Positions 13,073-35,924 of a DNA stretch of 64,000 nt are shown piece by piece (the first letter of the stretch is position 1; each line of letters opens with the position of its first letter). The notes beneath the pieces were generated by a model that worked only from the letters and a program-made list of their open reading frames with translations, had not been told where the DNA came from and made no database searches. The stretch spans positions 1,841,501 to 1,905,500 of the forward strand of contig NZ_CP045875.1 in assembly GCF_009649955.1 (NCBI RefSeq). The letters run 5' to 3'. Origin of the DNA: Heliorestis convoluta. Lineage in GTDB: Bacteria > Bacillota > Desulfitobacteriia > Heliobacteriales > Heliobacteriaceae. A program made the position numbers and the translations under genes.

Positions 13073-16000
13073 TTGCAAATGCAAAATATGGCCAATACAG
13101 TGCCATCTACAGAAGCAAAGGATAAACTGCTGCAAGTATTCCGCTTTGCTCACGCACTCAACCAACTACGAAACCCAGTGCAAAAAAACATTGACGACTA
13201 TTCTTGGACTTTTTGGCTTCATCAATTACCAGAACATGATAGTGTCCGAAGAGGCACAGTCAATCAAAATGAAGAAACAGATGAATTTATTTTTAAGATA
13301 AAAAGGGCTGAAAAAACCCTACCACCGAAAGTACCCAAAGAATTAGAGCCTTGGATTTCACGCACTTATATGGATCCTTTTCAAGAGCTTCAGTTGAACA
13401 AAAGCATTACGATTAAAAACGAACTAGATGAAACCATCACCGTATCATTCGAAGAAGAACGAGAAAGAATTATGAAATTTAAAGCTTGGAAAACAAAATA
13501 CGATGAATGGCAATTAAAAGAAAAACCAGCCCGCCGATCGATAGAGATTTTTGAAAGACTATATAATCTATACGCTAGATTAGAACGAGAAAATGAACAG
13601 TTAGAATTGATTCTAGGCGACGGAATACTCTACTGGTTAAAGACAGAGGGCAACACAATCAAGCATCCCATGCTGCTTCAACGTGTTCAAGTCCACTTTG
13701 ACCCTCCCATACCTGAGTTTACACTTACCTATACAGATCATCCGAAAGAACTATATACTGCTGCCTTGCGAATCTTAGATGAAGTAAGCCCGAAAGTAAT
13801 CAATCAACTACAGGAAGAAATAAATAACAACAACTACCATCCCCTTGAGGAAAAAGAAACAACAGAATTCTTAAAAAGTATGGTCAACCAACTGGCTTCC
13901 AATGGAGAATTTACAGGTCAAGAAGTACCCAGTGGAAAAAGAGATAGACCGCAAATAGGCAGAGACCCTGTAATATTTCTTCGCAAGAGAAACATGGGCA
14001 TGACTGCAACCATAGAACAGATCATTGAAGATTTGACAGAAAGAGAAGATAATCTTCCAAGCTTTCTAAAAAACATTGTTGGCTTAGAGGAAAGGATAAC
14101 AACAGCCAATGAAGCAACAGCAAGAATTACTTTGGATCCCAATGGAGAAGACGAACAAATCCTTTTATGTAAAGAAGCGAATGCCGAACAACTTCAAATT
14201 GCCAGGCAACTGGAGAGTTCAGGCGCTGTGATGGTACAAGGACCACCGGGAACAGGGAAAACCCATACGATAGCAAATCTATTAGGGCATCTATTAGCAC
14301 AAGGTAAGAATGTACTCGTTACCAGCCATACATCGAAAGCCTTAAAAGTATTGAGGGAGAAAGTTGTAGAACCACTGCAACCCCTCTGCGTCAGTGTCCT
14401 TGCTGATGACAATCGTCAACAATTGGGCAGCGCCATTGATGCAATAACAGAAAAACTATCGAACTCCATTCCAGAACAGCTCGATGAAGAAGCGGAAAAG
14501 CTTTTAGCAGAACGGAAAAAAGTTCTTGCAAAACTACGAGATAAGAGAGAGCAACTAAAGTCTGCTTGCTACGATGAATATCGCTCCATCGTAGTCGCCG
14601 GAGAAACCTATGAACCATCGAAAGCAGCACGCATACTGCACGAAGGCATAGGGAAGCATGATTGGATTCCATCACCTGTTACACTTGGAGCGCCTCTACC
14701 TCTAGCAGAAAAGGAACTGAAGGAACTATATCAGTTAAATCATTCGATCTCTACAGATGATAAAAAAGATCTGATACTTCCTCTACCAAATCCAAGTACC
14801 CTTTTAACAGAGCTAGAATTTCAAGAACTAGTTCAGAAGCGGAAAGAGCTCTTGGAGCAGAATCTAAAGCATCGTAAAGACTTATGGGATCATAGCAAGG
14901 AAAGAAAATACGAAGAACTGCAAGAACTCATGAATCAGTTACAACAAGTCCTTTCCTTCATCAATCAAAGAGAATCGTGGAAACTCAACATTATTGAAGC
15001 CGGAAAAAAAGGGCCTCTCTATTGTCAACCCTGGATTAACCTGCTCGATCAGATCAAAAATACTTACGAAGAAGCAGCAAAAGCGCAAGAAAAAATCTTC
15101 GAATACGGTCCCTTGATCCCTCCAAAGCTGCTTCATGAAGAGACGGAAGTAGTTTTACAAGGCTTACTTGAAGCAATCAAGCAAAAGGGAAAAATAACTA
15201 GGTTTGATTTATTATTCAAAGGTGAGTGGAAAAAAATCCTTGCAACAGTAAAAGTTAACGGCAAAGAACCATCCCAACCTCAACATTTTGAAGCTCTGCT
15301 TGCTTATCTAAAAGTCATGACAGCAAGGAAAAAACTTATCGATCGCTGGGAAAGACAAGCCGTAACAATTGGTGCGCCCACTGTACAGGAGCAGCAAGAA
15401 CCTGAACAAATCTTATATCAATTTTACCAACCTATTCAGAATTGCCTAGATTGGTATCAAGACAAATGGCTCAAGATGGAGCATACCCTTCAAAGACAAG
15501 GTTTCAATTGGGATGTACTCATCAATGAAAGCGATCTGAGCTTTTCCGAATATCAGGACCTATTAAAGATTCAAAATGCTGTAGAAAAGAAACTCCCAGC
15601 CATTATGCAAGCAGAGCAACATAGAATTCAACTTAAAGAAATAACAAATCAAATCAATGAACAGAGTAAGAAACTTGAAAAAGAAGGGTACTCACACCAG
15701 GGGATTGGAAAAGAGCTTTACAGCGCTCTAATAAACTCAAACACTGCCGAATACCAAAAAGCCTATCAACGGCTGATCGAATTAAAAACTATACTCAAAG
15801 ATTACAATAGAAAAAATGTTCTCTTACAACAACTTAACAACAGTGCTCCAGCTTGGGCTTCTGCATTGATGACGAAAAAAGAGCCCCATAATCAAGCAAG
15901 CACTCCTGGTCCTGCAAAAGAAGCATGGATCTGGCGACAGCTTCGAGATGAGTTAGATAGAAGGCACAATATATCGGTAGAAGAATTACAACAAGAAATA

Positions 16001-17593
16001 GAAGGCTTGCGAAAGACATTGATAGAGATGACAGCATCATTGGTAGAGAAAAAAGCCTGGTCAGCGCAAGTACGCAGAACAACCTTAAAACAAAGGCAGG
16101 CTTTACAAGGCTGGAAACAAATTATGAGAAGAGTTGGCAAAGGTACAGGCATTCGAGCGCCTCAGCTACTAGCAGAAGCCAGACAACTCATGCCTATTTG
16201 CCAAACAGCAGTGCCAGTTTGGATCATGCCTCTTAATAGAATGACTGAAGCCTTCAGTCCAAAAGAAAATCGTTTTGATGTGGTAATCATTGATGAAGCA
16301 AGCCAGTCCGATATCATGGCTCTCGTAGCTTTATACCTAGGAAAACAGATCGTCATCGTAGGAGATGATCAACAAGTCAGCCCTATGGCTGTAGGGGAAA
16401 GACAAGGAGAAGTACAGAAGCTCATAGACACTTACTTAGCAGCACACAACATTCCTAACGCCAAGCTTTATGACGGGATGTTTTCCATATATGATCTAGC
16501 CAAGACAACGTACCAACCTGTTTGTCTTAGAGAACATTTCCGCTGTGTTGCACCGATTATTCAATATAGCAATGACCTATCTTATGAAGGAAAAATTAAA
16601 GCCCTTCGAGATGATAGTACGACAAGAATCAAACCACCTACAGTAGCCTATCGAGTAGAAAAGGCTGAAATCAACAGGAGAGTCAACGTAGAAGAAGCTA
16701 AAGCAGTTGCATCCCTATTGATTGCTTGCACAGAACAGCAAGAGTATGCAAAAGCCTCTTTTGGCGTCATCTCTCTTTCAGGAGATCAACAAGCAGGATA
16801 CATTGATTCCTTGCTTCAAAAACACCTTTCTACTCAAGATTATATAGAACGAAAAATCCAATGTGGCAATCCTGCACATTTTCAAGGTGATGAAAGAGAC
16901 GTTATCTTCCTATCCCTTGTCGATGGTCCTGACGAAAAAGGAGGTCCCTTACGAAGAAAGACAGAGGGAAACCAAGATCTATTCAAGAAACGATACAACG
17001 TGGCGGCGAGTAGAGCTCGTGACCAATTGTGGGTCGTCCATTCACTCGATCCATCTAATGATCTTAAAGAAGGCGATCTACGACTAGGACTCATTCGCCA
17101 TGCCGAAGATCCTTTTTCTAAGATCAATGAATTAAAGCAAAAGAGCAAAAAAGCAGAATCGGAATTTGAGAGAGAAGTACTAAAGCGATTAATCCATAAA
17201 GGCTATAAAGTCACACCGCAATGGCACGTAGGCGCTTACCGCATTGATATGGTAGTAGAAGGGAATGGCAACAGATTGGCCATAGAATGTGATGGTGACA
17301 AATATCACACCCTAGACAATCTAGAAGATGACATGAACAGACAGGCAATACTAGAACGATTGGGTTGGCGCTTTGCTCGCATTCGAGGAAGTCAATTCTA
17401 CAGCGACCCCGATCATAGGATGGAAAGACTCTATAAAAAACTAAGCAACCTAGAAATATATCCATCCTTCGAGAAAGGACAACTAGAAATAGACTTTACT
17501 CATGATGCAGCAAAGGAAAAAGTAATCATTCGAGCCGCAGAGATTCGACGGGAATGGGAGAGCCAGGAAGAAAAGCAGGGATGGGTTTCGTAA
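13073..17593 (+). CDS. SF1 (UPF1-like) helicase with C-terminal Vsr/MTES_1575-like nuclease
   Basis: A 1,506-residue protein starting at TTG 13073 or ATG 13079 behind GTAGGATGG. Walker A is GPPGTGKTH at about residue 390. A long charged coiled-coil insertion (about 450-1000) follows, then the DEAS box in VVIIDEASQSD near 1070, VGDDQQVSP, the REHFRC motif, QGDERDVIFLS and NVAASRARDQLWVVHS, all of the UPF1/DNA2 type. The last 150 residues hold a PD-(D/E)XK-like nuclease: YRIDMVV then LAIECDGDKYH, and RLGWRFARIRGSQFY, as in very-short-patch-repair-type endonucleases. Proteins of this layout recur in phage defence islands. No partner gene is adjacent, so it may act alone. The biological role is inferred, the domain reading is firm. 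Confidence 0.8.
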   Translation: MQMQNMANTVPSTEAKDKLLQVFRFAHALNQLRNPVQKNIDDYSWTFWLHQLPEHDSVRRGTVNQNEETDEFIFKIKRAEKTLPPKVPKELEPWISRTYMDPFQELQLNKSITIKNELDETITVSFEEERERIMKFKAWKTKYDEWQLKEKPARRSIEIFERLYNLYARLERENEQLELILGDGILYWLKTEGNTIKHPMLLQRVQVHFDPPIPEFTLTYTDHPKELYTAALRILDEVSPKVINQLQEEINNNNYHPLEEKETTEFLKSMVNQLASNGEFTGQEVPSGKRDRPQIGRDPVIFLRKRNMGMTATIEQIIEDLTEREDNLPSFLKNIVGLEERITTANEATARITLDPNGEDEQILLCKEANAEQLQIARQLESSGAVMVQGPPGTGKTHTIANLLGHLLAQGKNVLVTSHTSKALKVLREKVVEPLQPLCVSVLADDNRQQLGSAIDAITEKLSNSIPEQLDEEAEKLLAERKKVLAKLRDKREQLKSACYDEYRSIVVAGETYEPSKAARILHEGIGKHDWIPSPVTLGAPLPLAEKELKELYQLNHSISTDDKKDLILPLPNPSTLLTELEFQELVQKRKELLEQNLKHRKDLWDHSKERKYEELQELMNQLQQVLSFINQRESWKLNIIEAGKKGPLYCQPWINLLDQIKNTYEEAAKAQEKIFEYGPLIPPKLLHEETEVVLQGLLEAIKQKGKITRFDLLFKGEWKKILATVKVNGKEPSQPQHFEALLAYLKVMTARKKLIDRWERQAVTIGAPTVQEQQEPEQILYQFYQPIQNCLDWYQDKWLKMEHTLQRQGFNWDVLINESDLSFSEYQDLLKIQNAVEKKLPAIMQAEQHRIQLKEITNQINEQSKKLEKEGYSHQGIGKELYSALINSNTAEYQKAYQRLIELKTILKDYNRKNVLLQQLNNSAPAWASALMTKKEPHNQASTPGPAKEAWIWRQLRDELDRRHNISVEELQQEIEGLRKTLIEMTASLVEKKAWSAQVRRTTLKQRQALQGWKQIMRRVGKGTGIRAPQLLAEARQLMPICQTAVPVWIMPLNRMTEAFSPKENRFDVVIIDEASQSDIMALVALYLGKQIVIVGDDQQVSPMAVGERQGEVQKLIDTYLAAHNIPNAKLYDGMFSIYDLAKTTYQPVCLREHFRCVAPIIQYSNDLSYEGKIKALRDDSTTRIKPPTVAYRVEKAEINRRVNVEEAKAVASLLIACTEQQEYAKASFGVISLSGDQQAGYIDSLLQKHLSTQDYIERKIQCGNPAHFQGDERDVIFLSLVDGPDEKGGPLRRKTEGNQDLFKKRYNVAASRARDQLWVVHSLDPSNDLKEGDLRLGLIRHAEDPFSKINELKQKSKKAESEFEREVLKRLIHKGYKVTPQWHVGAYRIDMVVEGNGNRLAIECDGDKYHTLDNLEDDMNRQAILERLGWRFARIRGSQFYSDPDHRMERLYKKLSNLEIYPSFEKGQLEIDFTHDAAKEKVIIRAAEIRREWESQEEKQGWVS

Positions 17594-19279: not shown

Positions 19280-22200
19280 ATGAATGAGGTTATCAGTTCC
19301 AACGATCAACTCATAGCAAAAATGAATGAAGTACTACAAGCCAGAAAAGGCAGTAAAATAAACATCATTAACGACAAACTAACCCTATCGGTTTTCGGAG
19401 AACTTTCAAAAAACCTAAAAAACGTCGATAAGATCAACTTTATCATTCGCAATACCAACTATGTACCCCAGGGTCACGAACTACCCCGAGAGTTTGAGAT
19501 ACGTCAAAGCGATACAGACCTTTTCTTCAACTCCTATGACATCATCCAAAAAAACAAACTACAACACTTTTCCAAAGCAAAATCGATGTACAACTTCATC
19601 CAAAAACATGTCAATGTACACAAAACCAAAGAAGCAGACAAAATCGCAGGCAACATTATCATGATAGACGATGAAATCGCCATCCACGGTACTTCATCTT
19701 TGGAAATATCAAGAAAAACAAAACGCGGAGAGCTAGCTCCCATCCATTTCAACTCCACCATCACAGAAAAAGCACAGCTAGACAAACTACAAAAGATGTT
19801 CCAGACCGTATGGAACAATAAAGAATACACCGAAGACTATAAAAAACAACTGCTCCAGAGCTTGAAGTATGTCTATAAAGATTACTCCCCCGAATTCCTC
19901 TACTACTTTACCCTCAAAGAGCTCTTCGGCAATCAACTAGACAACGGTCTTGATCGCTTTGAAAAAGATAAAACAGGCTTCAGGAAGTCAATCATCTGGA
20001 ATAGCCTCTATGAATTTCAGAAAGATGCTGTCGTATCAGCCATTCAAAAGATCAACAAATACAACGGTTGCATCATCGCCGACAGCGTGGGACTGGGAAA
20101 AACCTTCGAAGCCCTCGCTGTTATCAAATATTTCGAACTCCGAGAAGACAACGTTCTTGTCCTATGTCCGGCCAAACTCTACGACAACTGGGATTCTTTC
20201 AAAAACCCTTACATAGATAATGCCTTCGTCAAAGACAACTTCAACTACAAAATCCTTTGCCACACCGATTTAACAAGAACAAAAGGCTATTCCAGAAGTG
20301 GCATCGACTTATCCAGGATAAAATGGAGTCACTTCGACCTCGTCGTCATAGATGAATCTCATAATTTTCGCAACCGCAACGAAAACATAGAACACATTAG
20401 TCGCTACATGAAGCTCATGAACGATGTTATAAAAAAAGGCCACGGAACAAAAGTACTTATGCTATCAGCAACACCCGTCAACAACTCACTCATTGATCTA
20501 AAAAACCAGATCAGCATCATTACAGCCGATAAAGATCATGCCCTAGAAGAAGCAGGGATCAGTAGCATATCCAATCTGCTACGCAAATCACAAAAAGAAA
20601 TCAACGACTGGCTCAAAGGAGAAGAACGGACGAAAAATGCTCTTCTCGACAAGCTGCCTGCAGAATTCTACAAACTACTTGAAATGCTCACCATCTCTCG
20701 CAGCCGCAAACATATTACAGGCTATTACGGCAACCAAAACATCGGAAAATTTCCCGACAAATTGCCTCCCAAAACCTATCACCCCGAAATCGATAGCCAA
20801 AAAAGATTGCTAAAATTCGATGAAACCAACGAAGTACTAGAATCTCTCAAGCTAGCCGTCTACTCTCCCATGTCCTACATCCGATCAGAATACAAAGAGT
20901 ACTACCGCAGAAAATACCAGACTGTTCACGGCGACAGAGTCCTGTTCTACCATGAAAACCGTGAACAGATCACCGCACGATTACACAGATTCAACCTCTT
21001 TAAGCGCCTAGAAAGCTCTGTCTTCGCATTTGCAGAAACCATCCGAAGACTCATAGCTAGAATCGACGATTACATAGAAGCCCTATCTCGTAGCAAATCA
21101 GGAGAAGTACAACTAGAAGGCGAAGAATATACCGAAGAAGAGGTAGTCCTGAACTATAAATATGAGATAAAAGTTGAACATCTGATCGCAGCCGATTTCC
21201 TAGAAGATCTATACTACGACAAGAAAATACTTGAAGATCTCTACAGTGACGTATTAAAAATACTGAATGACAAAAGAGACGCCAAGCTGAAAAAGCTAGA
21301 AGAACTCATCATCGATAAAATTATAGAGACACCTTATAACCCAGGGAACAGAAAAATGCTCATCTTCTCAGCCTTTGCAGACACAGCCAACTATCTCTAT
21401 AACAGCATTGCTCAAGAACTTTCCCAGCATGGGATCAATGTAGCTTGCATTACCGGATCAAGCGAACCAAGAACAACAATGAAAAAAGTTCGCTCCGAGT
21501 TCAACACCATCTTGCGCCACTTTTCTCCTAAGTCTAAGCTTGGACAAGACTTGCCCAGGCAAGAACAAATTGACGTCGTCATTGCCACTGACTGTATATC
21601 AGAAGGACAAAACCTACAAGATTGCGACACCGTAATCAACTATGACATTCAATGGAATCCTGTCGTCCTTATCCAGCGCTTCGGTCGCATCGATCGCATT
21701 GGCAGTCAAAACAAACAAATCGCCATGATCAACTTTTTCCCCAACATGGCCTTAAATGATTACTTACAACTTGAGCAAAGAGTCAAAGGAAAAATGATGG
21801 CAGTGAACTTAACAGCCACAGGCGATGAAGACTTCCTATCACCAGAAATGAACGATTTCATCTTCAGGAAAAAACAACTAGAAAAATTGCAAGAAGAAGT
21901 CATTGAAATCGATGAGCTCAATGACAACATCTCACTAACCGACTTGAATATGAACGATTATCTCTATGAACTATCGGGATATATCAAAAATCATCCTGAA
22001 ATTAATAAAATACCCCGAGGTGTCTACTCAGTTGCCCAAGGCGATAAAAAAGGATGCCTCTTTTGCTTCAAATATCAAAAAGAAAAGGCCAAACCCACCA
22101 AAGAAAGCTCTCTCTACCCTTACTACATCATGTATATCGGTAAAGATGGCCAAGTCTACTACGGCAATGGTAACGCTCGTGAAGCTCTGAAAGAGTTTAG

Positions 22201-22444
22201 AAAAATAGCCTACGGCAAAGACAAGCCTGAGCCTGTTTTGTTCAAAGCCTTTAACAAACGTACCAAGAACGCTGAAGATATGTCTTTTTACTCACGATTG
22301 CTCAACAAAGCCATAGAAGCCATCCAAGGCGACGAAGACAAAATCGCCGAAACAACCATCTTCGATTTTGGAGGATATAACAACGACTTTGCCAACGCAA
22401 GCAGTGATGACTTTGAGTTAATATCTTTTCTCGTCGTGGAATAG
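19280..22444 (+). CDS. SNF2-type helicase of an R-M-like operon
   Basis: About 1,054 residues from ATG 19280, whose GGGAGGG site is seven bases upstream; a TTG at 19274 is in frame but worse placed. After a 230-residue N-terminal domain of unknown type come Walker A SVGLGKT (about 268), the DEAH-like box VIDESHNFRN (about 357), SATPVNN, a long insertion with YRRKY-type basic clusters, and the C-terminal helicase motif QRFGRIDRIGSQNKQ (about 799). It is the first of four tightly spaced genes (12, 19 and 12 base gaps). Helicases of this type accompany DUF4391 proteins and adenine methyltransferases in defence loci. Likely a DNA translocase of a restriction-like system. Confidence 0.82.
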   Translation: MNEVISSNDQLIAKMNEVLQARKGSKINIINDKLTLSVFGELSKNLKNVDKINFIIRNTNYVPQGHELPREFEIRQSDTDLFFNSYDIIQKNKLQHFSKAKSMYNFIQKHVNVHKTKEADKIAGNIIMIDDEIAIHGTSSLEISRKTKRGELAPIHFNSTITEKAQLDKLQKMFQTVWNNKEYTEDYKKQLLQSLKYVYKDYSPEFLYYFTLKELFGNQLDNGLDRFEKDKTGFRKSIIWNSLYEFQKDAVVSAIQKINKYNGCIIADSVGLGKTFEALAVIKYFELREDNVLVLCPAKLYDNWDSFKNPYIDNAFVKDNFNYKILCHTDLTRTKGYSRSGIDLSRIKWSHFDLVVIDESHNFRNRNENIEHISRYMKLMNDVIKKGHGTKVLMLSATPVNNSLIDLKNQISIITADKDHALEEAGISSISNLLRKSQKEINDWLKGEERTKNALLDKLPAEFYKLLEMLTISRSRKHITGYYGNQNIGKFPDKLPPKTYHPEIDSQKRLLKFDETNEVLESLKLAVYSPMSYIRSEYKEYYRRKYQTVHGDRVLFYHENREQITARLHRFNLFKRLESSVFAFAETIRRLIARIDDYIEALSRSKSGEVQLEGEEYTEEEVVLNYKYEIKVEHLIAADFLEDLYYDKKILEDLYSDVLKILNDKRDAKLKKLEELIIDKIIETPYNPGNRKMLIFSAFADTANYLYNSIAQELSQHGINVACITGSSEPRTTMKKVRSEFNTILRHFSPKSKLGQDLPRQEQIDVVIATDCISEGQNLQDCDTVINYDIQWNPVVLIQRFGRIDRIGSQNKQIAMINFFPNMALNDYLQLEQRVKGKMMAVNLTATGDEDFLSPEMNDFIFRKKQLEKLQEEVIEIDELNDNISLTDLNMNDYLYELSGYIKNHPEINKIPRGVYSVAQGDKKGCLFCFKYQKEKAKPTKESSLYPYYIMYIGKDGQVYYGNGNAREALKEFRKIAYGKDKPEPVLFKAFNKRTKNAEDMSFYSRLLNKAIEAIQGDEDKIAETTIFDFGGYNNDFANASSDDFELISFLVVE

Positions 22445-22456
22445 AGGTGAAGCAAA

Positions 22457-23185
22457 GTGCTAGACATTCCCTCTCGCTATAAAATCGATAAAACTTTTTC
22501 CATAAAAACATTTATTACCGCTGACTTAACACCCAAAGAGAAAAAACGTTTCAAAGAAGAAGTTATAGAAATAAAACTATCCCATCAAATAGCAGGAGAA
22601 GAGATCCCTTCTTTTGTCAACGACGAATACGACTGCCAGGTCATTCTTTTCTTCACAGTCCAGTTAAAGAAATTAAAATATGCCAACTTTGTGGGACCCA
22701 TTATCCAAGGTCTCGTCAAGTCTTTATGTGTTATTGAATTTTATGACCATAGTAGCCAACAAGTCTACTGCTTTTCCCACAAAAGGCTCAACATACAAGA
22801 TAAAAGCCAAATCGTCGTAGAAGAAACAGTCTATTCATCGCTTACTTCCATGCAATTTACCGATGAAATCAATGGCCTCTTGAAAGAGTACATTGCCTAT
22901 GACAACATCTATAACAGAGGCAACAAGCTGGACTTTTATCTGGAAATGATGATCAAAGCTTATATCATCTCCAACCTATCTTTATGGTCTGGAACAAGAG
23001 CGCTGCTTGCTTCAAATGTATGGTATAACAGAGATACCATGTTAAAGCTCTACCATGGGCTAAAAGAAGTAGAGCAACGAAAAAAAGAGCTGAAATCAGC
23101 CAGAACCATCGCGGAACAGTCTACAATCAATGCAAAACTAAAAAAGAGCTATGCTCAATTTAAGGAAATGATGGAGAAAACATAG
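22457..23185 (+). CDS. DUF4391-family protein
   Basis: A 242-residue protein starting at GTG 22457 with an AGAGGTG site eight bases upstream. It begins with a basic segment (LDIPSRYKIDKTF) followed by alternating helix and strand segments and a lysine-rich coiled-coil tail (KKELKSARTIAEQ). I recognise the DUF4391 pattern, a family known mainly from its place between a SNF2-like helicase and a methyltransferase. Its function is unknown. It lies 12 bases after the helicase gene and 19 before the methyltransferase gene, so it is very likely a subunit or adaptor of the same complex. Confidence 0.65.
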   Translation: MLDIPSRYKIDKTFSIKTFITADLTPKEKKRFKEEVIEIKLSHQIAGEEIPSFVNDEYDCQVILFFTVQLKKLKYANFVGPIIQGLVKSLCVIEFYDHSSQQVYCFSHKRLNIQDKSQIVVEETVYSSLTSMQFTDEINGLLKEYIAYDNIYNRGNKLDFYLEMMIKAYIISNLSLWSGTRALLASNVWYNRDTMLKLYHGLKEVEQRKKELKSARTIAEQSTINAKLKKSYAQFKEMMEKT

Positions 23186-23204
23186 GACATAGGAGGCTAA
23201 TAAA

Positions 23205-25214
23205 ATGGAGTTTCCCAAAGTGCCAAAAGAGATCTTCAATCCCATCAATGAAAATATAAAAAAGCTAGCCGAGCTATTTCCTTCCGTTGTAAAAGACGGA
23301 CAAATAGATCTTGAAGCATTGAAAGCCGAATTGGGACACTTTGAAAGTACCAGTGAAAAGCTATCAGAACGCTACGAACTTGGCTGGGCTGGCAAAGAAG
23401 CATCCAAGAAACTGGCCAATCAAGATGTTGTAGGACGGACCTTGAAATACATTCCCGAAGATAGCAAAAACCCCGAAACTACAGAGAACTTGTATATTGA
23501 AGGGGACAATCTGGAAGTTTTGAAGTTGCTTCGGAATTGTTACTATAACAAGATTAAGATGATCTATATTGATCCGCCCTATAATACGGGGAATGACTTT
23601 GTGTACAAAGATAATTTTTCGATTGCTCAAAAAGAAAATGGTGTTTTAGAAGGGGAGTTAGATAAAAACGGAGAGCGGTTGATAGTAAATCAGAAAAGCA
23701 GTGGTAGGTATCATTCTAATTGGTTGTCTATGATGTATCCGAGGTTGAAAATTTCTAAGGACTTATTAACTGAAGATGGAGTTGTATTTATCAGTATTGA
23801 TGATAATGAAATTGAGAACTTAAGGAAACTATGCAACGAGATTTTTGGCAGGGAAAATTATATAGAATCAATAATATGGTATAAGAATTCAACAAAAAAT
23901 GATTCGAAAGATTTTGCTACAATTCATGAATACATAATATGTTATGCTAAGAACAAAGCACACAGAAGAGATAGAGGATTAACTTTTAGAGAAAAAAAAC
24001 TTGGTTTTGAACAAGTTATGAATCTTGCTCAAAAATGGGAATTGGAAAATACTGACATAGAAGATGCACAAAAAGAGGTTAGGTTATTGTATAGAAATAA
24101 CCGAGACTTTAAAGGCTTATCGCAATATAAATATGTCGAGATTGTTGAAGGAAAATATAAAATATACAGAAAAGATAATGCAGCTTGGCCTCAAGGAGAA
24201 GGACCAAAATATGATGTTATTCATCCAATAACTAAAAAGCCATGTCAAACTCCCAAGAGAGGCTGGAGATGGAAAAAAGAAACAATGGATGATCTTTTAA
24301 AGCATAGATTAATATGTTTTGGTGAAGATGAATCCATAGTACCTCAGTTCAAAAGATATTTAGATACAATGGAAAGCAATATTGTTAAATCGGTATATGT
24401 TAACAATAATAATGGTGATGTAGATTTACGAGAAACCTTTAAAAAAACTGTTTTTGAACATCCTAAGCCGATTTCATTAATTAAGGATCTTTGCTTGTGG
24501 GCAACAAGAAAAGATTCAATGATACTCGACTTCTTTTCAGGATCTGCAACCACAGCTCATTCCGTTATGCAATTAAATGCTGAAGATGACGGTTGTCGTA
24601 AATTCATCATGGTTCAACTCCCAGAACCATGCGATGAAAAAAGCGAAGCCTACAAAGCAGGTTATAAAAACATCTGCGAAATCGGAAAAGAACGCATCCG
24701 CAGAGCCGGAGAAAAAATTCTAGAAGAAAACAAAGATAAAGCAGGCATTGAAAATCTTGACATAGGATTTAAAGTCTTTAGAACAGCAGATACCAACATC
24801 CGCTGGTTCAGCGAAGCCATAAAGAACAACGAACTCTTTGACTATGATAATCGAAGGTCTGACAAAGACAATTTAGACTTTAACCCAAGCTATAAGGACA
24901 TCGACGTAGTCTATGAAATCTTACTTCGCCACAGAGATATTCCCCTTTCTTCAAGTGTAGACAAGCTTTCTTCTATTGGCGAACGAACTTATATCTTTGC
25001 AGACACAGTATTGGTCTGCCTAGAAGAAAACATAACGGAAACGATGATTGACAAGATTGCAGCCATAGAACCAATGCCTTCCAAGATCATCTTCCGTGAT
25101 AGTGCTTTTGAAGCCGATATTTCTTTGAAAAGCAACAGCATGCTACGCTTAGAAGCGCAAATGAAAAAAAACAGCGGCACCAAGAAAAAGGCTTACCGCG
25201 TCGAGTTTATATAA
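23205..25214 (+). CDS. mod: Type III-like DNA adenine methyltransferase (Mod)
   Basis: A 669-residue methyltransferase with a TAGGAGGC site. DPPYNTG lies near residue 123 and the AdoMet motif FFSGSATTAHS near 445, the DPPY-first order of beta-class enzymes. The N-terminal 100 residues (LGHFESTSEKLSERYELGWAGK) match type III Mod subunits. The region between the motifs holds the target recognition domain. From about 23490 to 24550 the codon choice turns AT-rich, while both ends share the C-ending codons of the neighbours, which points to a swapped recognition segment. It should modify adenine at a short asymmetric site for the Res subunit downstream. Confidence 0.88.
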   Translation: MEFPKVPKEIFNPINENIKKLAELFPSVVKDGQIDLEALKAELGHFESTSEKLSERYELGWAGKEASKKLANQDVVGRTLKYIPEDSKNPETTENLYIEGDNLEVLKLLRNCYYNKIKMIYIDPPYNTGNDFVYKDNFSIAQKENGVLEGELDKNGERLIVNQKSSGRYHSNWLSMMYPRLKISKDLLTEDGVVFISIDDNEIENLRKLCNEIFGRENYIESIIWYKNSTKNDSKDFATIHEYIICYAKNKAHRRDRGLTFREKKLGFEQVMNLAQKWELENTDIEDAQKEVRLLYRNNRDFKGLSQYKYVEIVEGKYKIYRKDNAAWPQGEGPKYDVIHPITKKPCQTPKRGWRWKKETMDDLLKHRLICFGEDESIVPQFKRYLDTMESNIVKSVYVNNNNGDVDLRETFKKTVFEHPKPISLIKDLCLWATRKDSMILDFFSGSATTAHSVMQLNAEDDGCRKFIMVQLPEPCDEKSEAYKAGYKNICEIGKERIRRAGEKILEENKDKAGIENLDIGFKVFRTADTNIRWFSEAIKNNELFDYDNRRSDKDNLDFNPSYKDIDVVYEILLRHRDIPLSSSVDKLSSIGERTYIFADTVLVCLEENITETMIDKIAAIEPMPSKIIFRDSAFEADISLKSNSMLRLEAQMKKNSGTKKKAYRVEFI

Positions 25215-25226
25215 GGGGGGCGAACA

Positions 25227-28200
25227 GTGGCCAACCGCATTTCTTTTCAATTCGAAGATGGACTGAAATTCCAGCAAGATGCTATAAAATCAGTCATCAA
25301 TCTTTTTAAAGGCGTTAGCCGCCAAGATGAAGGGACCATCTACTACAATCTGAACAGAATCAAAAAAATCACAGAAGGCGACCCTGTTCGTAACCCTCAA
25401 CTTGTAAAACCCACAAGGCTTTTACATAATCTTCGAGAAGTGCAACTCAATAATAGGCTCTTCATGGCTCAAGAGCTTCAAGGCAATAACTTCACCATTG
25501 AAATGGAAACAGGCACAGGGAAGACCTATGTATATCTCAGAACAATACTTGAACTATATAGAACCTACGGATTTACCAAGTTTATGATTGTTGTCCCGAC
25601 CATCGCCATTCGAAAAGGCGTCGAAAAAAGCATAGACATGTTGCGAGACCACTTTAAAAGCCTTTATCATGGCCTCGATATTAAGAACCATGCTTTTGTC
25701 TATGATTCCAAGAGCCTCAATAAGATTAGCAGTAGTTTTGTTGAAACGAGAGATTTAAGTATCGTCATAATGAACATCCAAGCATTTAATAAAGATTCCA
25801 ATAAAATTCGTCAATCTGATGAAGGCGGGCAAATTCTATGGGAAGACATCAAATACATCAATCCTATTGTCATTATCGACGAACCGCAAAAAATAGAGGG
25901 AACAACGAAGAAAAAGAGTGCTTCCTTAGAAGCCATTGAAATGATTAACCCTTTGTTCATATTACGATACTCGGCGACCCATAAAAAGCTTTTCAACCAG
26001 ATCTACAAGCTTGACTCTTACGACGCCTATCAACATAATCTGGTAAAAAAAATCGAAGTCAAGACCATTCACGGCACCATTCCTAAAGATTATCCCTATG
26101 TACGTTACGTAGAATTTACTAAAGACTTGTATGCCAAAATCGAATTATTTTGCGTGGAGCAAGGTGGCATGATCCGCAAAAAACAACTGAAAGTACGAGG
26201 TGGAGATTCTTTATACGAATGCTCTGGTAACTTAGAGCAATATAGAAACATGATTGTCATGGAAGATCCACACAAATTGAAAAAGCTCATCATCGGCAAA
26301 TGGGATGACCGCTTGGAACTTGCTGTTGGCGAAAGCAACTTCAATATCGGTGATGAAGAAGCAGTTAGAATCCAGATCAGACTGGCTCTCAAAAGCCACT
26401 TGGAAAAACAGTATAGAAACTTAAGAGCAGGGAAAAAGATAAAAGTTTTAACTCTCTTTTTCATTGATGCCGTTAACAAATTCAGAGACAACCAAAGTGC
26501 CGACGGCCGTGGTGAATACCTGCGTATTTTTGACGAAGAATACAACAAAATGATTGTCGACACCCAATGGAACAAAATATTCAAAGAGTACCCAGAGCTA
26601 TTCAAGGAATACAAGAATGTGCACAAAGTCCGTGAAGGATATTTTGCAGTAGATAAAAATAAAAAAGCCGTTGAAGTTGAAAACTGGGAAAACACAATGG
26701 ATGAGGGAAAACTAAAAGCCAAATCGCAAGAAGATGTCGATCGAGGTATCGAACTGATTCTAGAGAAAAAGGACGAGCTCATTTCCTTTGAAGAACCGCT
26801 GGCTTTTATATTCTCTCACTCTGCTTTGCGAGAAGGATGGGACAACCCCAATGTTTTCACCCTATGTACCTTAAAAAAAGGTGGCTCCGACATTGCCAAA
26901 AAGCAAGAAATCGGTCGAGGTCTAAGGCTTTCCGTTGATATCGATGGCAACCGTTGCACCGATGAGAAGATAAACGAATTAACAGTCATCGCCAATGATC
27001 ATTACGACCATTTTGCAGAAGCACTTCAACAGGACTTCAACGAAAGTTCCGGCTTTAACAAAGACGAAGTTACCTACGATGTGATCTATAAGACCTTACA
27101 AGATGCAGGCATACCAGAAGATAAAATCATGGAACTAGCAGAACCTTTTAAAAGTGAGCTTAAGCAACAAAACATCATTAACAAAGATGGCGTGCTGACC
27201 AGAGACGCCAAGAAAATAGAAAACATTACCTTTATTCATAAAACGCTTAAGGAACACAGCATCTTAATTAAGAAAAAGTTCATTGAAACAATGCAAGCAA
27301 AGGGCACTAAGAAAATTGTCATCATAAATGGTGATGAAGTACCTGTCGACAATGGCAAACACAGCTTCATTTCGGAAGATTTTTTTGAGCACCTACTCAA
27401 AGAATTGGGCAAGCGGATGTCACAACGAACCATGTACCAGGTCCAAATCGACAGCGATGCTTTTATAGAAGAATCGGTGACAGAATTAAACGATCTATTG
27501 CGTTACAAACGAGTCAAGTATGAGTACAACATAGAGACAGGTAAAGTAGAATATGACGAACAGAAGAAATTTCGCCTCTCCGACCCTTCCGTGCAAAACG
27601 TTTTCTACGAGCTTGAGGGAATGGATACGCAAAAAAGCCAATTCGAGATCATCAACTATATCATGTACCACACCATGCTCCCTCGCCTAGCCATTTACAG
27701 GATCATATCCAAATTTGAGAAAACGGAAATTCTAAAGAACCAGGATATCCTTGACTTCGTAACGCAAAAGATCAAAGAAAAGCTTACCGATTTCATGGCC
27801 AAAGGCGTCGTTACATACGAAGCCATTGATGGCTATGTATTTGATGAATCCACCATATTCGAAACTGATCAAATCGATTTATCCATGCTCAATGATGCCA
27901 CATCCCTCGTCTTCAAAACCAACGCCGACAGCCGTAGAGCAGTTTAGCAAGTACTATAAATTCGACAGCAAAGGAGAACTTGACTTCGCCAAACGGCTTG
28001 ACGTCGATGAAAAAGTGCTCCTATATACCAAGATAAGAAAAGGCGGCTTTGTCATCGATACACCCTATGGCGAATACTCGCCTGACTGGGCTGTGATCCG
28101 AAAAGGGGAGAATAACAAAGCAAGACTTTTCTTCATCGTAGAAACCAAAATAGACAAAATTGAACGCGATTTAAGCGAAGTCGAAAAGACCAAGATAAAG

Positions 28201-28296
28201 TGTGGAAAGCTTCACTTTAAAGCCGTTGCCCAAGATGTTCAGTTTAAGCAGGCTAAAAATTATGATGACTTTTTGCAGAAGATTGGGGTTTCGTAG
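25227..28296 (+). pseudogene. res: Type III restriction subunit (Res), nuclease end out of frame
   Basis: Starts at GTG 25227 behind AGGGGGGCG. The first 906 codons carry the translocase: METGTGKTYV near residue 92, DEPQK near 216, SATHKK, and EIGRGLRLS of motif VI. The frame then stops at 27945-27947 right after NADSRRAV. From about 27936 the next frame reads VEQFSKYYKFDSKGELDFAK and continues to 28296 with YSPDWAV and FFIVETK, which is the PD-(D/E)XK nuclease of Res. So the nuclease is present but displaced. Family wording suggests the ancestral codons were RRAVEQF, which would follow from loss of one copy of an 8-base tandem AGAGCAGT. If the sequence is right, the subunit would translocate but not cut. 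Confidence 0.85.
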
Positions 28297-28332
28297 GGTT
28301 AGAGTTGTAAAAATAAGTATGTGGTTATAGAA

Positions 28333-28374
28333 AAGCAGTCCAGGTTGTTTTGAGCAACCTGGACTGCTTTTTTA
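28333..28374 (+). terminator. Terminator of the Mod-Res operon
   Basis: GCAGTCCAGGTTG pairs perfectly with CAACCTGGACTGC across a 7-base loop, followed by TTTTTT. Confidence 0.93.
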
Positions 28375-28418: not shown

Positions 28419-28703
28419 TTTTACAAAAAAGCTCAGGAGTGCTTTAGTGTTGATGTAATCATAGAAAAAGCAGCTTGGAAAATTGCAATTCAGGCCAAAC
28501 GCTACCAAAGCTACGTAGGCCTCGATGCGGCACAGGAAGTTATTGGAGCACGAGGTTTTTACAAAGCTCATGAGGCATGGGGTGTATCAAATGCAGATTT
28601 TAAGCAATTAACGAAGCAACTTGCAATGAGCAAGCATGTAAAGATGGAAGAATCACCAATTATATTAGCTAACAAGAGAAAGATAAATGCCAAGAGCTTA
28701 TAA
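28419..28703 (+). pseudogene. Mrr-type restriction endonuclease, C-terminal remnant
   Basis: An unannotated frame of about 94 codons reads IAIQAKRYQSYVGLDAAQEV and then IGARGFYKAHEAWGVSNADF. This is the Mrr catalytic domain: the QAK motif (third catalytic element) and the following YxxxVGxxAxQEV helix and A.E..GV.N..F region. There is no start codon with a ribosome binding site, a stop lies just upstream at 28416, and the first half of the domain with its catalytic Asp is missing. It is a broken type IV restriction gene. It ends at TAA 28701. Confidence 0.75.
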
Positions 28704-28880: not shown

Positions 28881-30420
28881 ATGAAAAAAAGCTACAGTTG
28901 GACTAAACCAAATATACCCAAATTAATTGGAAGAAAAAAAGTCGACCTTTCTACTTTTGAATACGCGATTCATATTCCTAGAGACTTTATTGTGGATTTT
29001 GTTCAAGCTAATGATGGATTTCACTTGGAGCGCGGAAATAGAATTGAAATAGTTTTAATGCATGATGGGATTCTTTATAAAGCTTTTTTGCACAATGTAA
29101 ATCAACAGAAAAACGAGGGTGATGTATTACAGATACGTTATGACAATAGCGAAGAATTAAAGCAAGTACTCAGGGAAAGATTAAATAGAAGTTACTCATA
29201 TATTCAAGAACAAAAAGCGATAAAGGAAGATTCAGCGAGAATAAAGATACCAAACGAAATTGCCGAATATGTAGATTTCTATGACACAGGTAAACCTTTT
29301 GAATATCGAATAGAGCTTATTACGGCAGGTAACAAAGAAGCTCTAACCACCACAGGATTTCATCAAGAAAAATGATGATGATGAAATAAGTACATGGATT
29401 TTTCAGGCTAACCCCAAAAAGTATGACCTTTCTGGGGCTTTACATGCTCTTGAAAAGCTAACCTGGGGTACTTTTCGCTATAAAACGAAGATTCGCAAAG
29501 GACATAAGGTGTATTTATGGGAGGCTGGTGAAAAATCAGGAATTGTTACTACTGCAACGGTCTTAATAGAGCCAGAAATGGTTCAAGCAACTCCAGAAGA
29601 AGAGCCTTACTTTATTGCAAGAGAAATAGAACGGGTAGGAGTTTGGCTCAAAATAGAAGCTATACTTCCAAAGAGAATTTTACGTAAAGACATACTTGAC
29701 CATCCTGTATTAAAGGAAATGCTAATCATTCGACAAGCCAATGGCACCAATTTTCCAGTTACAGCAGATCAAGAAGAAGCCATAGAAGCGTTAATCCAAT
29801 CAAAAGAACAGATAAAGGCAGTTTACGATGATGAGACTATGGAGGATGATCATACTTTTTTTTCACCGAATCCCGAATACTCATTAGCTGAATGTGCTGA
29901 AGAGACTGGGGTTAGCGAAGAAGAACTATCTAAGTGGATACGAGTGATTCAATCTAAAGGACAAGCTATTTTTTATGGACCACCTGGAACAGGGAAAACG
30001 TACTTAGCACAGCGTCTAGCTAAACACCTTATTGGAGACGGTAACGGCTTTCAAAAACTAATTCAGTTTCATCCTGCCTATGCTTATGAAGATTTTATAC
30101 AGGAAATACGGCCTGCAGTTAATCGGCATGGTCAATTGGAGTATAAGCTTACTCCAGGACGATTTATGGAGTTTTGCCAAGAGGCAGAAAAAAGAAATGG
30201 CATATGTGTTCTTATCGTAGATGAAATTAATCGAGCTAATCTGACTCGGGTTTTCGGTGAATTAATGTATTTATTAGAGTACAGAGATCGAAATATTCCG
30301 TTGTCCTGTAGTGGTCATTTCACAATCCCACAAAACGTACGCATTATAGGAACCATGAACACGGCTGATCGTTCCATTGCATTAGTTTTCTTGACAATAT
30401 TGGTCCAGGTCATCATGTAG
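28881..30420 (+). pseudogene. EVE-McrB-type AAA+ protein, frameshifted and truncated
   Basis: The first frame (ATG 28881 to TGA 29373) encodes an N-terminal domain I do not recognise. A second frame takes over near 29360 and reads STWIFQANPKKYDL then KLTWGTFRYKTKIRKG and GHKVYLWEAG, an EVE domain, a fold that binds modified bases. It continues into a McrB-type GTPase/AAA+ domain: GPPGTGKTYLA, then VDEINRANLTRVFGELMYLLE and the McrB hallmark MNTADRSIALV. Right after that hallmark the expected RRRF segment is missing; the frame runs into McrC sequence. So the gene has a frameshift between the N-terminal and EVE domains and a deletion of its end. The intact parent would be a type IV, modification-dependent restriction subunit. 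Confidence 0.8.
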
Positions 30421-30851
30421 GAACACATACAATGTTACCTTTTTTGATCAATATGGCTCGTCTATACGAACAGTTCGTAGCTCAGTGGTTGGTAGAGAAT
30501 TTACCAGAGCAATATCGATTAAAAAAGCAGGAGCGTGTTCAAATTGACCACGACGGTGAATTAATAGCTTCTATTGATCTAGTGATTTATGATTGGCGAA
30601 CCAATCAAGTTCTACATATTTTAGATACGAAGTATAAAGTCGTTGAACGCCCAAGTCCACAGGATGTTTATCAAATTGTAGCCTATGCAGTGGCCAAAGA
30701 ATGTCATGAAGCGATACTTGTATATCCTTTTCAGGTAACAAATCAAAGAATAAGAAGAATTGGCCAAATTCGTTTGAGGATGCTTTCTTTTCCGCTAGGT
30801 GGTGACTTAGGGGAAGCGGGACAGGCTTTTCTTAGAGACTTGTTGGAGTAA
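30387..30851 (+). pseudogene. McrC-type nuclease subunit, C-terminal remnant
   Basis: From 30387 the frame FLDNIGPGHHVGTHTMLPFL leads into ARLYEQFVAQWL, the McrC conserved segment, and then the nuclease core SIDLVIYD and LDTKYK, followed by QIVAYA. The N-terminal half of McrC and the end of McrB are both gone, joined by one deletion at about 30385-30395. No start codon with ribosome binding site precedes it. An ATG at 30432 could start a 139-residue nuclease-only product, but no function is expected without the McrB motor. Confidence 0.8.
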
Positions 30852-32101: not shown

Positions 32102-35100
32102 TTACGATTTGTATACTTGTTCTTTTCTGAACTTAAGTACACCTTTACTGTCTGACCTATTCATAGGACATTGATTATATCTTAAGCATTTCACACATTC
32201 CGCCTTATTAAATTGCACAGTAAATTTTTTATTGTTCGAGTTATACTTAATATTTAAGGGTATTGCTTTTTCTATACAATCTGTAATAGTTCTTCTAGTA
32301 GAGTCGAAATTAAAACAAGAAAAATCTTGGTCTATTTGATTACTATTGTGTTGCGTGTCTTTTTGAAAAGTATTTCTAATATTACTTTTTAGCTCTTCTT
32401 CAGAAGAAGCGGTCTTTCCATTTAGCTCAACCGCAGAAATATGCTTAAATAATAAGTTAAAATTATCCATAGTACCAAGCATATCTAATATATCTTTAGA
32501 CAAGTTCATTGAGGAAAGCACTTTTTGAAAAGTTTTAATATAAAAAATTTCTTTAAGTGCTAAAGATGAGACTGTTGAATCATTATTCAAGTAAAGTATT
32601 TGATTAAAGTCTTCTATGGCTTTATCAAATTGATAAATCATAATATATAATTTGCCACGATTATAGTAAGCTATCGATACATTAGGATCAAGTTCAATGG
32701 ATGTTGTATAGGCGTTGATAGCATTCGTATACGCTTTAATACCTTTATAAGCTTCACCTAAAGTATAATAAACCAAGGGATAGGGTGGTTTCGAACTAAC
32801 AATATTCTCCAAAACATCTACTGCTTCATTGTACTTTTCTAGTTCGTTAAGAACATAGCCCTTATAATTGAGAATTTCAAAATCATTAGGACTGAATTTC
32901 AATGCTTTTTCTAAATAGATTAAAGCCTCTTCAAACTCATTATTATCTATAAAGGTTAATGCGTATTGTTTATATTTCTTTGCTTTTGGATGTCTGTTAG
33001 AAGTTACTGACCATAAAAACATTACTCGTTCTAATTCAGTAGGTGGTTTTGCTTCTGTTTTACTATTTAATGCATTTTTACATTCTGTTATATGCTTTCT
33101 TATATTATTCTTAAATATACTCTCTTTATCAGTAGAAGGATTTCTATTCCAACTTTTATCAATAGTATCAAAAATATAACAAGGTAGAGTTAATGCTTTC
33201 TCAAATAATTGAATAGCTTCTACATATTTACCTAAATCATACAGCAAGAGACCTTTGATAAAGTAACCATTTCCAATAGTTGCGTCAACAGCAATAGCAT
33301 TGTCCATTGTTTCTATAGCTTTTTCATAATTTTTAAGAAATCTAAGTGTAGAGGCCTTGTCTAAATAGACTTCATACCATTCCGGCTTAATGCTCAAAGT
33401 CTGGTCAAAATAGCGTATTGAATAATCAGACCCGCTAACCATATAAGAGTAGGCTACACCTAGATAATAATAGCCTTCTGCGTGGTCAGGGTACTTTTCT
33501 ATAACATTATTAAAAAAATCCACAGCTTTTGTAAAATCTTTCTTGCGTATACTATACTTTCCTTTTTGTAGATACTGTTCAAAGTCATGCTTATCTTTTA
33601 ATTTTTGGAAGTCTTTTGTTATATTACTGACTTCTTTTTCTTCTATTTGTTTGTTAACTTGGCGTATATATTCTTCTCGAGGTAGATCTCTAGATAACTT
33701 AAGTGCGTAATCACTCTTTTTGGTGTTTCCGATTTTCTCCAATCTATATGCTTCTTTAGCCCAATCTTCTTTTGTTGATTTATTTTTCAAAGATAGTTTT
33801 TCATAATTACACTCAGTCATTGTTTCAACGTAACTGGATATTTCATTCAGCATTAAATTTTTTGTATCTTCTTCGTAGATATAAAGATTATCCATTGCAC
33901 GACTTGTAGCTACATAAAAAAGGTTAAAGGAATGCCTATATTTTGTTTGACGTTTCCCTAAACCCTTTACTATATCCTCCCAGATTGCACTATTTTTTGT
34001 GATAACATTGATGCAGAATACAGTAGAATATTCTAATCCTTTTATCTCATTAATAGTAAAAATTCGACCAGTTGCTTCAGGATTTATTTTTTCTAGTCGC
34101 GCCCGTTCTTCTTCATCTGGAACAATTACGGCTGAATAATGCTTATCTTTTACTGAATCCAAAATCATAGAAAGTACATCTTCTTTAGGTGTAACTAATG
34201 TGGGCTTTTGGCCTATACGTATATACCCTTCTTCGTAATCAAACGGGGTAAAGCCTATTTTTGTTTTGCGTATCTCAATCAATCTATTCAAAAATGTTAC
34301 AATACCTGATACGCTTCTATAATTTTTAGATAAGATTCTTTCTTCAGTATCAGTATTTAATGAATAATACATATTTTTAAGTCTTCCAAATTCAAAAAAA
34401 GTAGCGATGATCATTTGATGCAAATCGCCAGTATAAAGAATTTGACTTTGATCTTTAACCATTTGACTTAATAAATATAATTGTACTTCTGTAAAATCTT
34501 GAACTTCATCTACAATAATAAAATCATACTTTGGTTGTTCATTTAAGTTAGTCAAACATTCAAATGAAAGATCACATTCGTCATATCTGTTAGTTTCATT
34601 TAGCCATTTAGTATAAGCTTCAGTGAGATCATAAATCGCTTCTTTAGTAGATTTGTCAAAAATGGAGTAATCTTTTGGAATTAATAGATACTCTTCTTTG
34701 CTTAGGATATTATTGTTTCTTACAAATTTATTTTTAAGCTTAAACTCAAAACCCATGAAACCTTTTATTAAAGTTCGAATTTCACTCCATATATAAAAAG
34801 TATTTATTTTCTTAAGCTTTTTATACTTGTAGCGATTAGACACAAACCAATTGTTAAATTCTTCGAAGGTGACCAAAAGTGAATTATCTTGTTTTATTTC
34901 TTGAGCCCATTTTTTTATGGAATAAAAAGTTGCTATGTTTTCTGACGATAATTTGTATTTTTCATATAAATTTTTTATATTTTCCATTAATAAATCTGAA
35001 TTTGTAATATAACAAGCTTTTAACCTATTTTTTTGACACCATAGTAACTTCTGAACAGCAACTGTAGTTTTTCCACTTCCTGCTGCTCCTAATAACAAAA

Positions 35101-35659: not shown

Positions 35660-35924
35660 ACAAATCACCTTTCTTTCTCTCAGTATGTTCAAAACTAACC
35701 AATCATTGTTTAACTATTTAAAAGAATATCTTATCTATTATTAATGAACATAGATCCTGCTTACTTTTAAGCATATCCCCCCTATTTAATACTAAAGAGG
35801 CAATAGAAACGTGACATATAGTATTGGAATTATATAGTATTAATTATAACAAAGATTAAGAGAGTCGTTAAGATTGTTTGGTCACAAATTTCACATGTAG
35901 GAACAATAAAAATCCTCAGTTTAA

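What the first reader, a model, noticed from the sequence alone, without database searches (positions are those of the whole stretch)
19280..28296. Four-gene SNF2 helicase, DUF4391, Mod, Res operon
A SNF2-type helicase and a DUF4391 protein of unknown function are fused into one transcript (gaps of 12, 19 and 12 bases) with a type III-like Mod and Res pair. Standard type III systems need only Mod and Res. The extra pair suggests a composite defence system in which DUF4391 and SNF2 add sensing or remodelling.
Basis: partly seen in the sequence, partly recalled or inferred. Interest (0 to 1): 0.6.

Follow-up and report, generated by a model that had tools for sequence, protein, structure and literature searches.

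The report
Four-gene type III restriction system
This is one copy of a widespread, seemingly unnamed variant of a classic bacterial anti-phage system (type III restriction-modification) in which the usual methylase-nuclease pair nearly always travels with a DNA motor protein and a small protein of apparently new fold (DUF4391), which suggests that textbook two-part systems of this branch really have four parts.

Summary
In detail: SNF2 helicase, DUF4391, type III Mod and type III Res lie in tandem at 19280-28296 with gaps of 12, 19 and 12 bases, closed by a strong terminator-like hairpin. Two details were missed. Res is split by a net one-base insertion near 27946, so its endonuclease domain is out of frame here. 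The helicase carries an N-terminal phospholipase-D-like domain whose catalytic HKD motif is lost in nearly all relatives.

The four genes form one real module. Of 94 loci with room on the contig, 92 carry all four, from Bacillota to E. coli plasmids. One has the order permuted to Mod-Res-SNF2-DUF4391. Helicase and Res distances correlate at r=0.92. The Res proteins form a clade far from EcoPI; some two-gene members inside it keep decayed remnants of the front pair. DUF4391 folds confidently and matches no solved structure.

Murray 2021 reported an extra helicase 5' of type III mod. That description better fits a second, DrmD-like class found here without DUF4391. No named system covering all four genes was found. 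Likeliest role: an accessory translocase-adaptor module that boosts type III restriction (inferred, not shown). Novelty: new variant (subtype) of type III restriction-modification.

The parts
19280..22444 (+). SNF2-family (RapA-like) helicase/translocase with an N-terminal degenerate PLD (HKD) domain; 1054 aa from ATG 19280
   Evidence: PADLOC C3a139 902 bits; PF00176, PF00271; Walker A GLGKT, DESH and motif VI RIDRIGS kept in 70 of 70 complete systems; best PDB fold RapA; HxK motif absent here and in nearly all of 112 relatives
22457..23185 (+). DUF4391 protein, 242 aa, probable non-enzymatic adaptor with C-terminal helical hairpin
   Evidence: PF14335 159.5 bits; model pLDDT 94.5; no PDB or viral fold match with E <= 0.001; no invariant column in 26 sequences
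23205..25214 (+). Type III DNA methyltransferase (Mod), 669 aa
   Evidence: MTase_III 651 bits; PF01555; similar to EcoP15I Mod 4zcf_A, E 4.6e-88; DPPY at residue 123 and DFFSGSAT at 442
25227..27947 (+). Type III Res, helicase part, 906 aa; frame ends early
   Evidence: REase_III 568 bits; EcoP15I Res 4zcf_C, E 7.8e-47; Walker A TGTGKT, DEPQ; 79% identical over 906 aa to L074 Res
27948..28296 (+). Res C-terminal endonuclease domain in a shifted frame (mechanical ORF 27826-28296)
   Evidence: PF19778 4.3e-27; 88% identical to the C-terminus of L074 Res; net +1 base at about 27946
28328..28374 (+). terminator-like hairpin closing the operon
   Evidence: 22-bp stem, -33.7 kcal/mol, z-score -9.42

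Best explanation
The locus is one copy of a four-gene subtype of type III restriction-modification. Mod (probably as a dimer) reads an asymmetric site, methylates it on one strand, and with one Res makes the restriction complex (inferred from homology to EcoP15I). The SNF2 protein is an ATP-driven duplex-DNA translocase without a nuclease of its own, because its PLD/HKD domain is degenerate. DUF4391 is its small obligate, non-enzymatic partner and likely the adaptor that couples the motor to the Mod-Res complex. Most likely the pair helps restriction, not methylation: it moves along unmodified invader DNA and clears or bypasses bound proteins such as RNA polymerase (the closest fold is RapA), so that Res complexes can meet and cut where plain sliding would be blocked. 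Shown here: conserved linkage, order, co-inheritance, loss of the HKD motif, no known fold for DUF4391. Inferred: complex formation, translocation and the stimulating role. In this genome Res lacks an in-frame nuclease domain, so this copy may methylate but not restrict, unless the frameshift is a sequencing error.
For: DUF4391 occurs in 33 of 398 sampled phylum genomes. Wherever the contig allows, the helicase is linked to DUF4391, Mod and Res: 92 of 94 loci, median helicase-DUF4391 gap 1 base, over many phyla and on E. coli, Acinetobacter, Lactococcus and E. faecium plasmids. One locus keeps the two pairs in swapped order, Mod-Res-SNF2-DUF4391 (L155). Distances of helicase and Res correlate at 0.92, above Mod and Res at 0.82, permuted maximum 0.15. 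Asymmetric decay: Mod-Res stay intact with a broken or remnant front pair (L086, L092, L184); among loci with enough sequence one intact front pair was seen with a broken Mod and no Res (L146). Motor motifs are kept in 70 of 70 systems, HKD is lost in at least 109 of 112, closest fold RapA. An extra helicase was dispensable for methylation and was not detected in a cutting enzyme preparation of a related system (PMC8259958).
Against: No biochemical or phage data were found for this family. Co-occurrence shows linkage, not direction: the pair could act on methylation, on self-protection, or as a separate effector licensed by methylation. The Eco86II result concerns a helicase that is probably of another class. 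The helicase model has only moderate confidence (mean pLDDT 69.3), and no complex was modelled. Loci with Mod-Res alone (L185, L186, L191, L193) show that the pair is not essential for this clade of Mod-Res.
Confidence: 0.5

Rival explanations
1. The SNF2-DUF4391 pair is a second, separate effector arm that shares the operon and uses Mod methylation only as a self-mark, like helicase effectors in DISARM or BREX-related systems. It would block replication or expression of unmethylated DNA without Res.
For: Methylase plus SNF2 helicase is the core of DISARM and of BREX-related systems; a Type-2 BREX-related system has an HKD-SNF2 effector and a standalone small DUF3780 (PMC12839542). The helicase scores against DrmD.
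Against: The HKD nuclease motif is lost, DUF4391 has no enzyme-like invariant residues, and the pair is essentially always with Res too, with helicase-Res distances the most tightly correlated pair.
Confidence: 0.2
2. The pair acts on the self side: SNF2-DUF4391 resets or removes Mod-Res complexes from freshly replicated, one-strand-methylated host DNA, or opens protein-covered sites for Mod, so preventing self-restriction.
For: Type III enzymes methylate one strand only, so daughter duplexes carry unmodified sites; a SNF2 remodeller could strip enzymes. The pair lies 5' in the operon, so it would be made before Res (inference).
Against: Loci keep intact Mod-Res after losing or breaking the pair (L086, L092, L184; two-gene L186, L191, L193), which would be toxic if the pair were a needed safeguard. 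A related extra helicase was not required for methylation (PMC8259958).
Confidence: 0.15
3. Plain type III restriction-modification with two hitch-hiking genes of no joint function, as often seen in defence islands.
For: The locus lies among other defence genes (helicase-REase 13073-17593, McrBC fragments 29509-30851), and other defence genes do insert into this operon.
Against: Hitch-hikers vary between loci, as the inserts here do; these two do not: 92 of 94 loci, close spacing, both pairs kept when the order is permuted, correlated divergence.
Confidence: 0.04

Closest known systems
Type III restriction-modification (EcoP15I, EcoPI)
   Same: Mod and Res are homologues of EcoP15I Mod (E 4.6e-88) and Res (E 7.8e-47), with the same motifs and order mod-res.
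   Different: Two extra conserved genes; Res falls in a clade separated from phage P1 EcoPI by a long supported branch.
Type III systems with an extra helicase/ATPase 5' of mod (BspHIV, Eco86II; Murray et al. 2021, PMC8259958)
   Same: A SNF2/SF2 helicase without a nuclease motif 5' of type III mod and res.
   Different: BspHIV has about 140 bp of non-coding sequence between helicase and mod, leaving no room for DUF4391; the paper never mentions a DUF. A DrmD-like class with that layout was found here (L215, 171-bp gap; L225, L226). Direct identity with Eco86II/BspHIV was not tested, as those sequences were not held.
PADLOC C3a139 'HKD+Snf2'
   Same: The helicase family itself: full-length match, 902 bits.
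   Different: A single-gene profile, not a defined four-gene system; and 'HKD' is a misnomer for most members because the motif is lost.
DISARM (DrmD plus methylase)
   Same: SNF2 helicase paired with an N6/N4-type DNA methylase.
   Different: The helicase is far below the NCBIfam DrmD cut-off (160.7 of 610 bits); no DrmA, DrmB or DrmC was found in the locus; a type III Res is present.
Type-2 BREX-related systems (PMC12839542)
   Same: HKD-SNF2 helicase, adenine methylase and a small standalone DUF (DUF3780) of unmatched fold.
   Different: Core there is a DUF499 ATPase, with the HKD nuclease as effector; here type III Mod-Res, a degenerate HKD and DUF4391.

Membership tests
Type III restriction-modification | Mod: beta-class aminomethyltransferase with DPPY and motif I | tested here: met
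   MTase_III 651 bits; DPPYN at 123, DFFSGSAT at 442
Type III restriction-modification | Res: SF2 helicase plus C-terminal PD-ExK endonuclease in one protein | tested here: inconclusive
   Both domains are encoded, but in this genome a net +1 base separates them into two frames; intact in relatives (about 1000 aa)
Type III restriction-modification | One-strand methylation of an asymmetric site; cleavage needs two inverted sites | not testable with these tools
   Needs methylome sequencing and cleavage assays
Type III restriction-modification | Composed of Mod and Res only (classical form; not strictly required, since helicase-bearing type III systems are published) | tested here: not met
   SNF2 and DUF4391 accompany Mod-Res in 92 of 94 loci with room; hence filed as a variant, not as the classical form
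Murray 2021 helicase-associated type III | Helicase immediately 5' of mod with no gene between | tested here: not met
   DUF4391 lies between in the window and in the canonical-order relatives; the matching layout belongs to DrmD-like loci
Murray 2021 helicase-associated type III | m4C methylation by Mod | not testable with these tools
   m6A and m4C type III Mods share DPPY; methylome needed
DISARM | DrmD equivalog plus DrmA, DrmB, DrmC | tested here: not met
   DrmD 160.7 bits against a cut-off of 610; neighbours are not Drm genes
HKD (PLD) nuclease-helicase effectors | Intact HxK(x)nD / GSxN catalytic motif | tested here: not met
   Window has KIAGNIIMIDDEIAIHGTSSLE; HxK-GSxN in at most 3 of 112 relatives

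The most novel reading that the evidence does not exclude
SNF2-DUF4391-Mod-Res is a distinct, ancient subtype of type III restriction-modification, the main form of its Res clade, in which a dedicated SNF2 motor and an adaptor of new fold are integral to restriction. The spaces between DUF4391, Mod and Res are preferred slots for backup effectors (SIR2-HerA, PrrC-like, Schlafen, RhuM, Fic), making the operon a carrier of layered immunity.
Probability: 0.5. Interest if true: 0.75.

Novelty: new variant of a known kind. Interest (0 to 1): 0.6.

Why it matters
Type III restriction is textbook two-subunit machinery. Here, about 8% of sampled genomes of one phylum (33 of 398) carry a form with two further conserved genes, one of unmatched fold, found across many bacterial phyla and on plasmids. 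Defence annotation tools split it into 'type III RM' plus a helicase and miss DUF4391. Close homologues exist in E. coli, including CFT073 and plasmids, so the roles can be tested directly after cloning into laboratory strains. It also makes testable a question left open in 2021: why hundreds of type III systems carry an extra helicase.

Tried and rejected
DUF4391 as a single-sequence query in genome contigs found nothing; a helicase alignment worked. Fold searches of DUF4391 in PDB and viral libraries gave no match; the weak sequence hits are designed coiled coils. An active HKD nuclease in the helicase was considered and rejected. Identity with the Murray 2021 helicase was considered and judged unlikely because of the layout; a direct test failed because E. 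coli NCTC86 is not held. L155 first looked like a pair without Mod-Res; reading upstream showed a permuted order. Monophyly of four-gene Res was tested and is not strict: the tree needs 13 label changes, against 19.4 in shuffles, but many two-gene rows near four-gene ones are cut by contig ends or carry remnants. Promoter scan was uninformative.

Full report
Observation. The window holds, on the + strand, a SNF2 helicase (19280-22444), a DUF4391 protein (22457-23185), a type III Mod (23205-25214) and a type III Res starting at 25227, with gaps of 12, 19 and 12 bases. Profile searches give HKD+Snf2 (C3a139, 1.2e-271), DUF4391 (PF14335, 1.7e-46), MTase_III (6.1e-196) and REase_III (1.2e-170). 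Mod and Res match the EcoP15I subunits of PDB 4zcf (4.6e-88 and 7.8e-47). A 22-bp hairpin follows Res at 28328-28374 (-33.7 kcal/mol, z -9.4), in keeping with one transcription unit, which itself was not tested. Both sides are otherwise well preserved, so the event is recent or a sequencing error.

Co-occurrence. In 398 genomes drawn across the phylum, 33 carry DUF4391. The loci were fetched and read gene by gene; 80 further loci came from a helicase search over a collection of species genomes, spanning Bacillota, Pseudomonadota, Bacteroidota, Verrucomicrobiota, Acidobacteriota, Planctomycetota, Campylobacterota, Actinomycetota and others, and one archaeon, Methanobrevibacter, whose copy is decayed; a further archaeal helicase match is on a Methanomethylovorans plasmid (neighbours not read). 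Plasmid records of E. coli, Acinetobacter, Lactococcus and E. faecium show the same four neighbours as annotated. Of 94 helicase loci with more than 2.8 kb of contig after the helicase, 92 carry DUF4391, Mod and Res; the two exceptions are decayed (L146 has a broken Mod and no Res, L096 a truncated helicase). The other incomplete loci have less than 2.8 kb left on the contig. The helicase and DUF4391 lie a median of 1 base apart. In L155 the order is Mod-Res-helicase-DUF4391: the two pairs have swapped places but stayed together. Sampling was by DUF4391 or helicase, so these figures measure what accompanies the pair; a few loci may be the same species reached by two routes (for example L083 and L137 are identical). 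From the Res side, 49 of the same 398 genomes have a related Res.

Evolution. In a tree of 76 Res proteins, those from four-gene loci and their near relatives are separated from phage P1 EcoPI and two classical-looking Res by long, fully supported branches. Two-gene loci are scattered inside. Many are simply cut by contig ends; L092 and L184 keep helicase remnants next to intact Mod-Res, and L086 has a shattered helicase and a split DUF4391 beside intact Mod-Res. L185, L186, L191 and L193 look like true two-gene forms. Decay is thus mostly one-sided: Mod-Res often outlive the front pair, while the reverse was seen only in L146. Pairwise distances of 70 complete systems correlate: helicase-Res 0.92, helicase-DUF4391 0.82, Mod-Res 0.82, DUF4391-Mod 0.73, with permuted maxima below 0.15. 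Shared vertical descent contributes to these values; no species-tree control was made.

Parts. The helicase keeps its motor motifs in 70 of 70 systems, and its closest solved fold is the RNA-polymerase recycling SNF2 protein RapA (model mean pLDDT 69.3). The N-terminal domain is labelled HKD by PADLOC and looks PLD-like, but HxK...GSxN is recognisable in at most 3 of 112 relatives and absent in the window, so the label describes ancestry, not activity. DUF4391 gives a confident model (pLDDT 94.5, pTM 0.89): an alpha/beta core with a long C-terminal helical hairpin carrying the family motif E.QFN.K.ELN in many members. No PDB or viral structure matches with E <= 0.001. It has no invariant column, which argues for a binding or adaptor role rather than catalysis.

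Inserts. In 49 of the 91 canonical-order systems the four genes are not strictly contiguous (some of this is broken frames or insertion sequences). 72 of 78 inserted ORFs lie between DUF4391 and Mod or between Mod and Res, only 6 between helicase and DUF4391. They are mostly unrelated to one another. The representatives scanned include SIR2-HerA, a PrrC-like AAA_13 protein, Schlafen AlbA_2 proteins (the commonest cluster, 11 members), RhuM, Fic, HEC-07, GmrSD-type and YhcG nucleases. The operon therefore seems to carry exchangeable backup effectors in set places.

Comparison with known systems. Murray et al. 2021 (PMC8259958) reported an extra helicase/ATPase 5' of mod in two m4C type III systems and close proximity in over 500 genomes; it was not needed for methylation and was not found in a cutting Eco86II preparation. 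Their BspHIV map has only about 140 bp between helicase and mod. Among Pseudomonadales I found a second class with just that layout, a DrmD-like helicase (about 650 bits to PDLC02619) 5' of Mod-Res and no DUF4391 (L207, L210, L215), with a similar layout in E. coli (L225, L226). I therefore think the published helicase is the DrmD-like one; this is inference from layout, as the original sequences were not held. If it is wrong, the helicase association is known and only the DUF4391 link is new. NCBIfam and PADLOC gave no match for DUF4391. The only held paper naming DUF4391 lists it as a domain enriched in one group of Actinomyces hosts. Literature coverage is limited to open-licence papers.

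Mechanism. The pair is a predicted motor plus adaptor attached to a type III enzyme. Because the motor has no recognisable nuclease, because the pair tends to be lost before Mod-Res, and because a related extra helicase is dispensable for methylation, I favour an accessory role in restriction: translocation or roadblock clearing that lets Res complexes meet. Rivals are a separate effector arm and a self-protection role. None is excluded; a deletion series in a laboratory strain would separate them.

Noticed in passing
L207:3122-12332, L210:3502-12690, L215:144-7998, L192:946-13569, L225:8983-18382, L226:8986-18506: A second composite type III class: DrmD-like SNF2 helicase directly 5' of Mod-Res, no DUF4391, sometimes with Schlafen-type or other genes between; related helicases on E. 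coli and Klebsiella plasmids. Probably the Murray 2021 helicase.
   Followed up: partly
L069:6096-9619, L073:6387-8798, L076:8341-9243, L072:5474-6511, L136:13908-20446, L149:13876-19002: The DUF4391-Mod and Mod-Res spaces are recurrent insertion slots for other defence genes (SIR2-HerA, PrrC-like, Fic, RhuM, Schlafen, HEC-07, DUF2779).
   Followed up: partly
L155:4885-13830: Permuted gene order Mod-Res-SNF2-DUF4391 in a Chitinophagaceae genome, all four intact.
   Followed up: yes
L183:12001-21661 (E. coli CFT073 chromosome 5116943-5126603): The four-gene system sits beside a tRNA-Leu gene in CFT073 with an upstream helix-turn-helix regulator, next to remnants of BrxA and of a phosphorothioate-dependent endonuclease.
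   Followed up: no
window 13073-17593: 1506-aa helicase with C-terminal REase_MTES_1575 nuclease (PADLOC PDC-S37-like), another defence-type gene upstream.
   Followed up: no
window 28431-28700: Remnant of an Mrr-type restriction endonuclease (PF04471, 3.3e-9) just after the operon.
   Followed up: partly
window 29509-30851: Short McrB-like (weak EVE plus AAA_5) and McrC-like ORFs, apparently truncated.
   Followed up: no
window 32102-35692 (-): 1196-aa UvrD-type helicase fused to many TPR repeats.
   Followed up: no
L093:5129-13816: A longer HKD-SNF2 relative (1293 aa, 581 bits to C3a139) next to a DruE-like helicase, with no DUF4391: a possible sister system.
   Followed up: no
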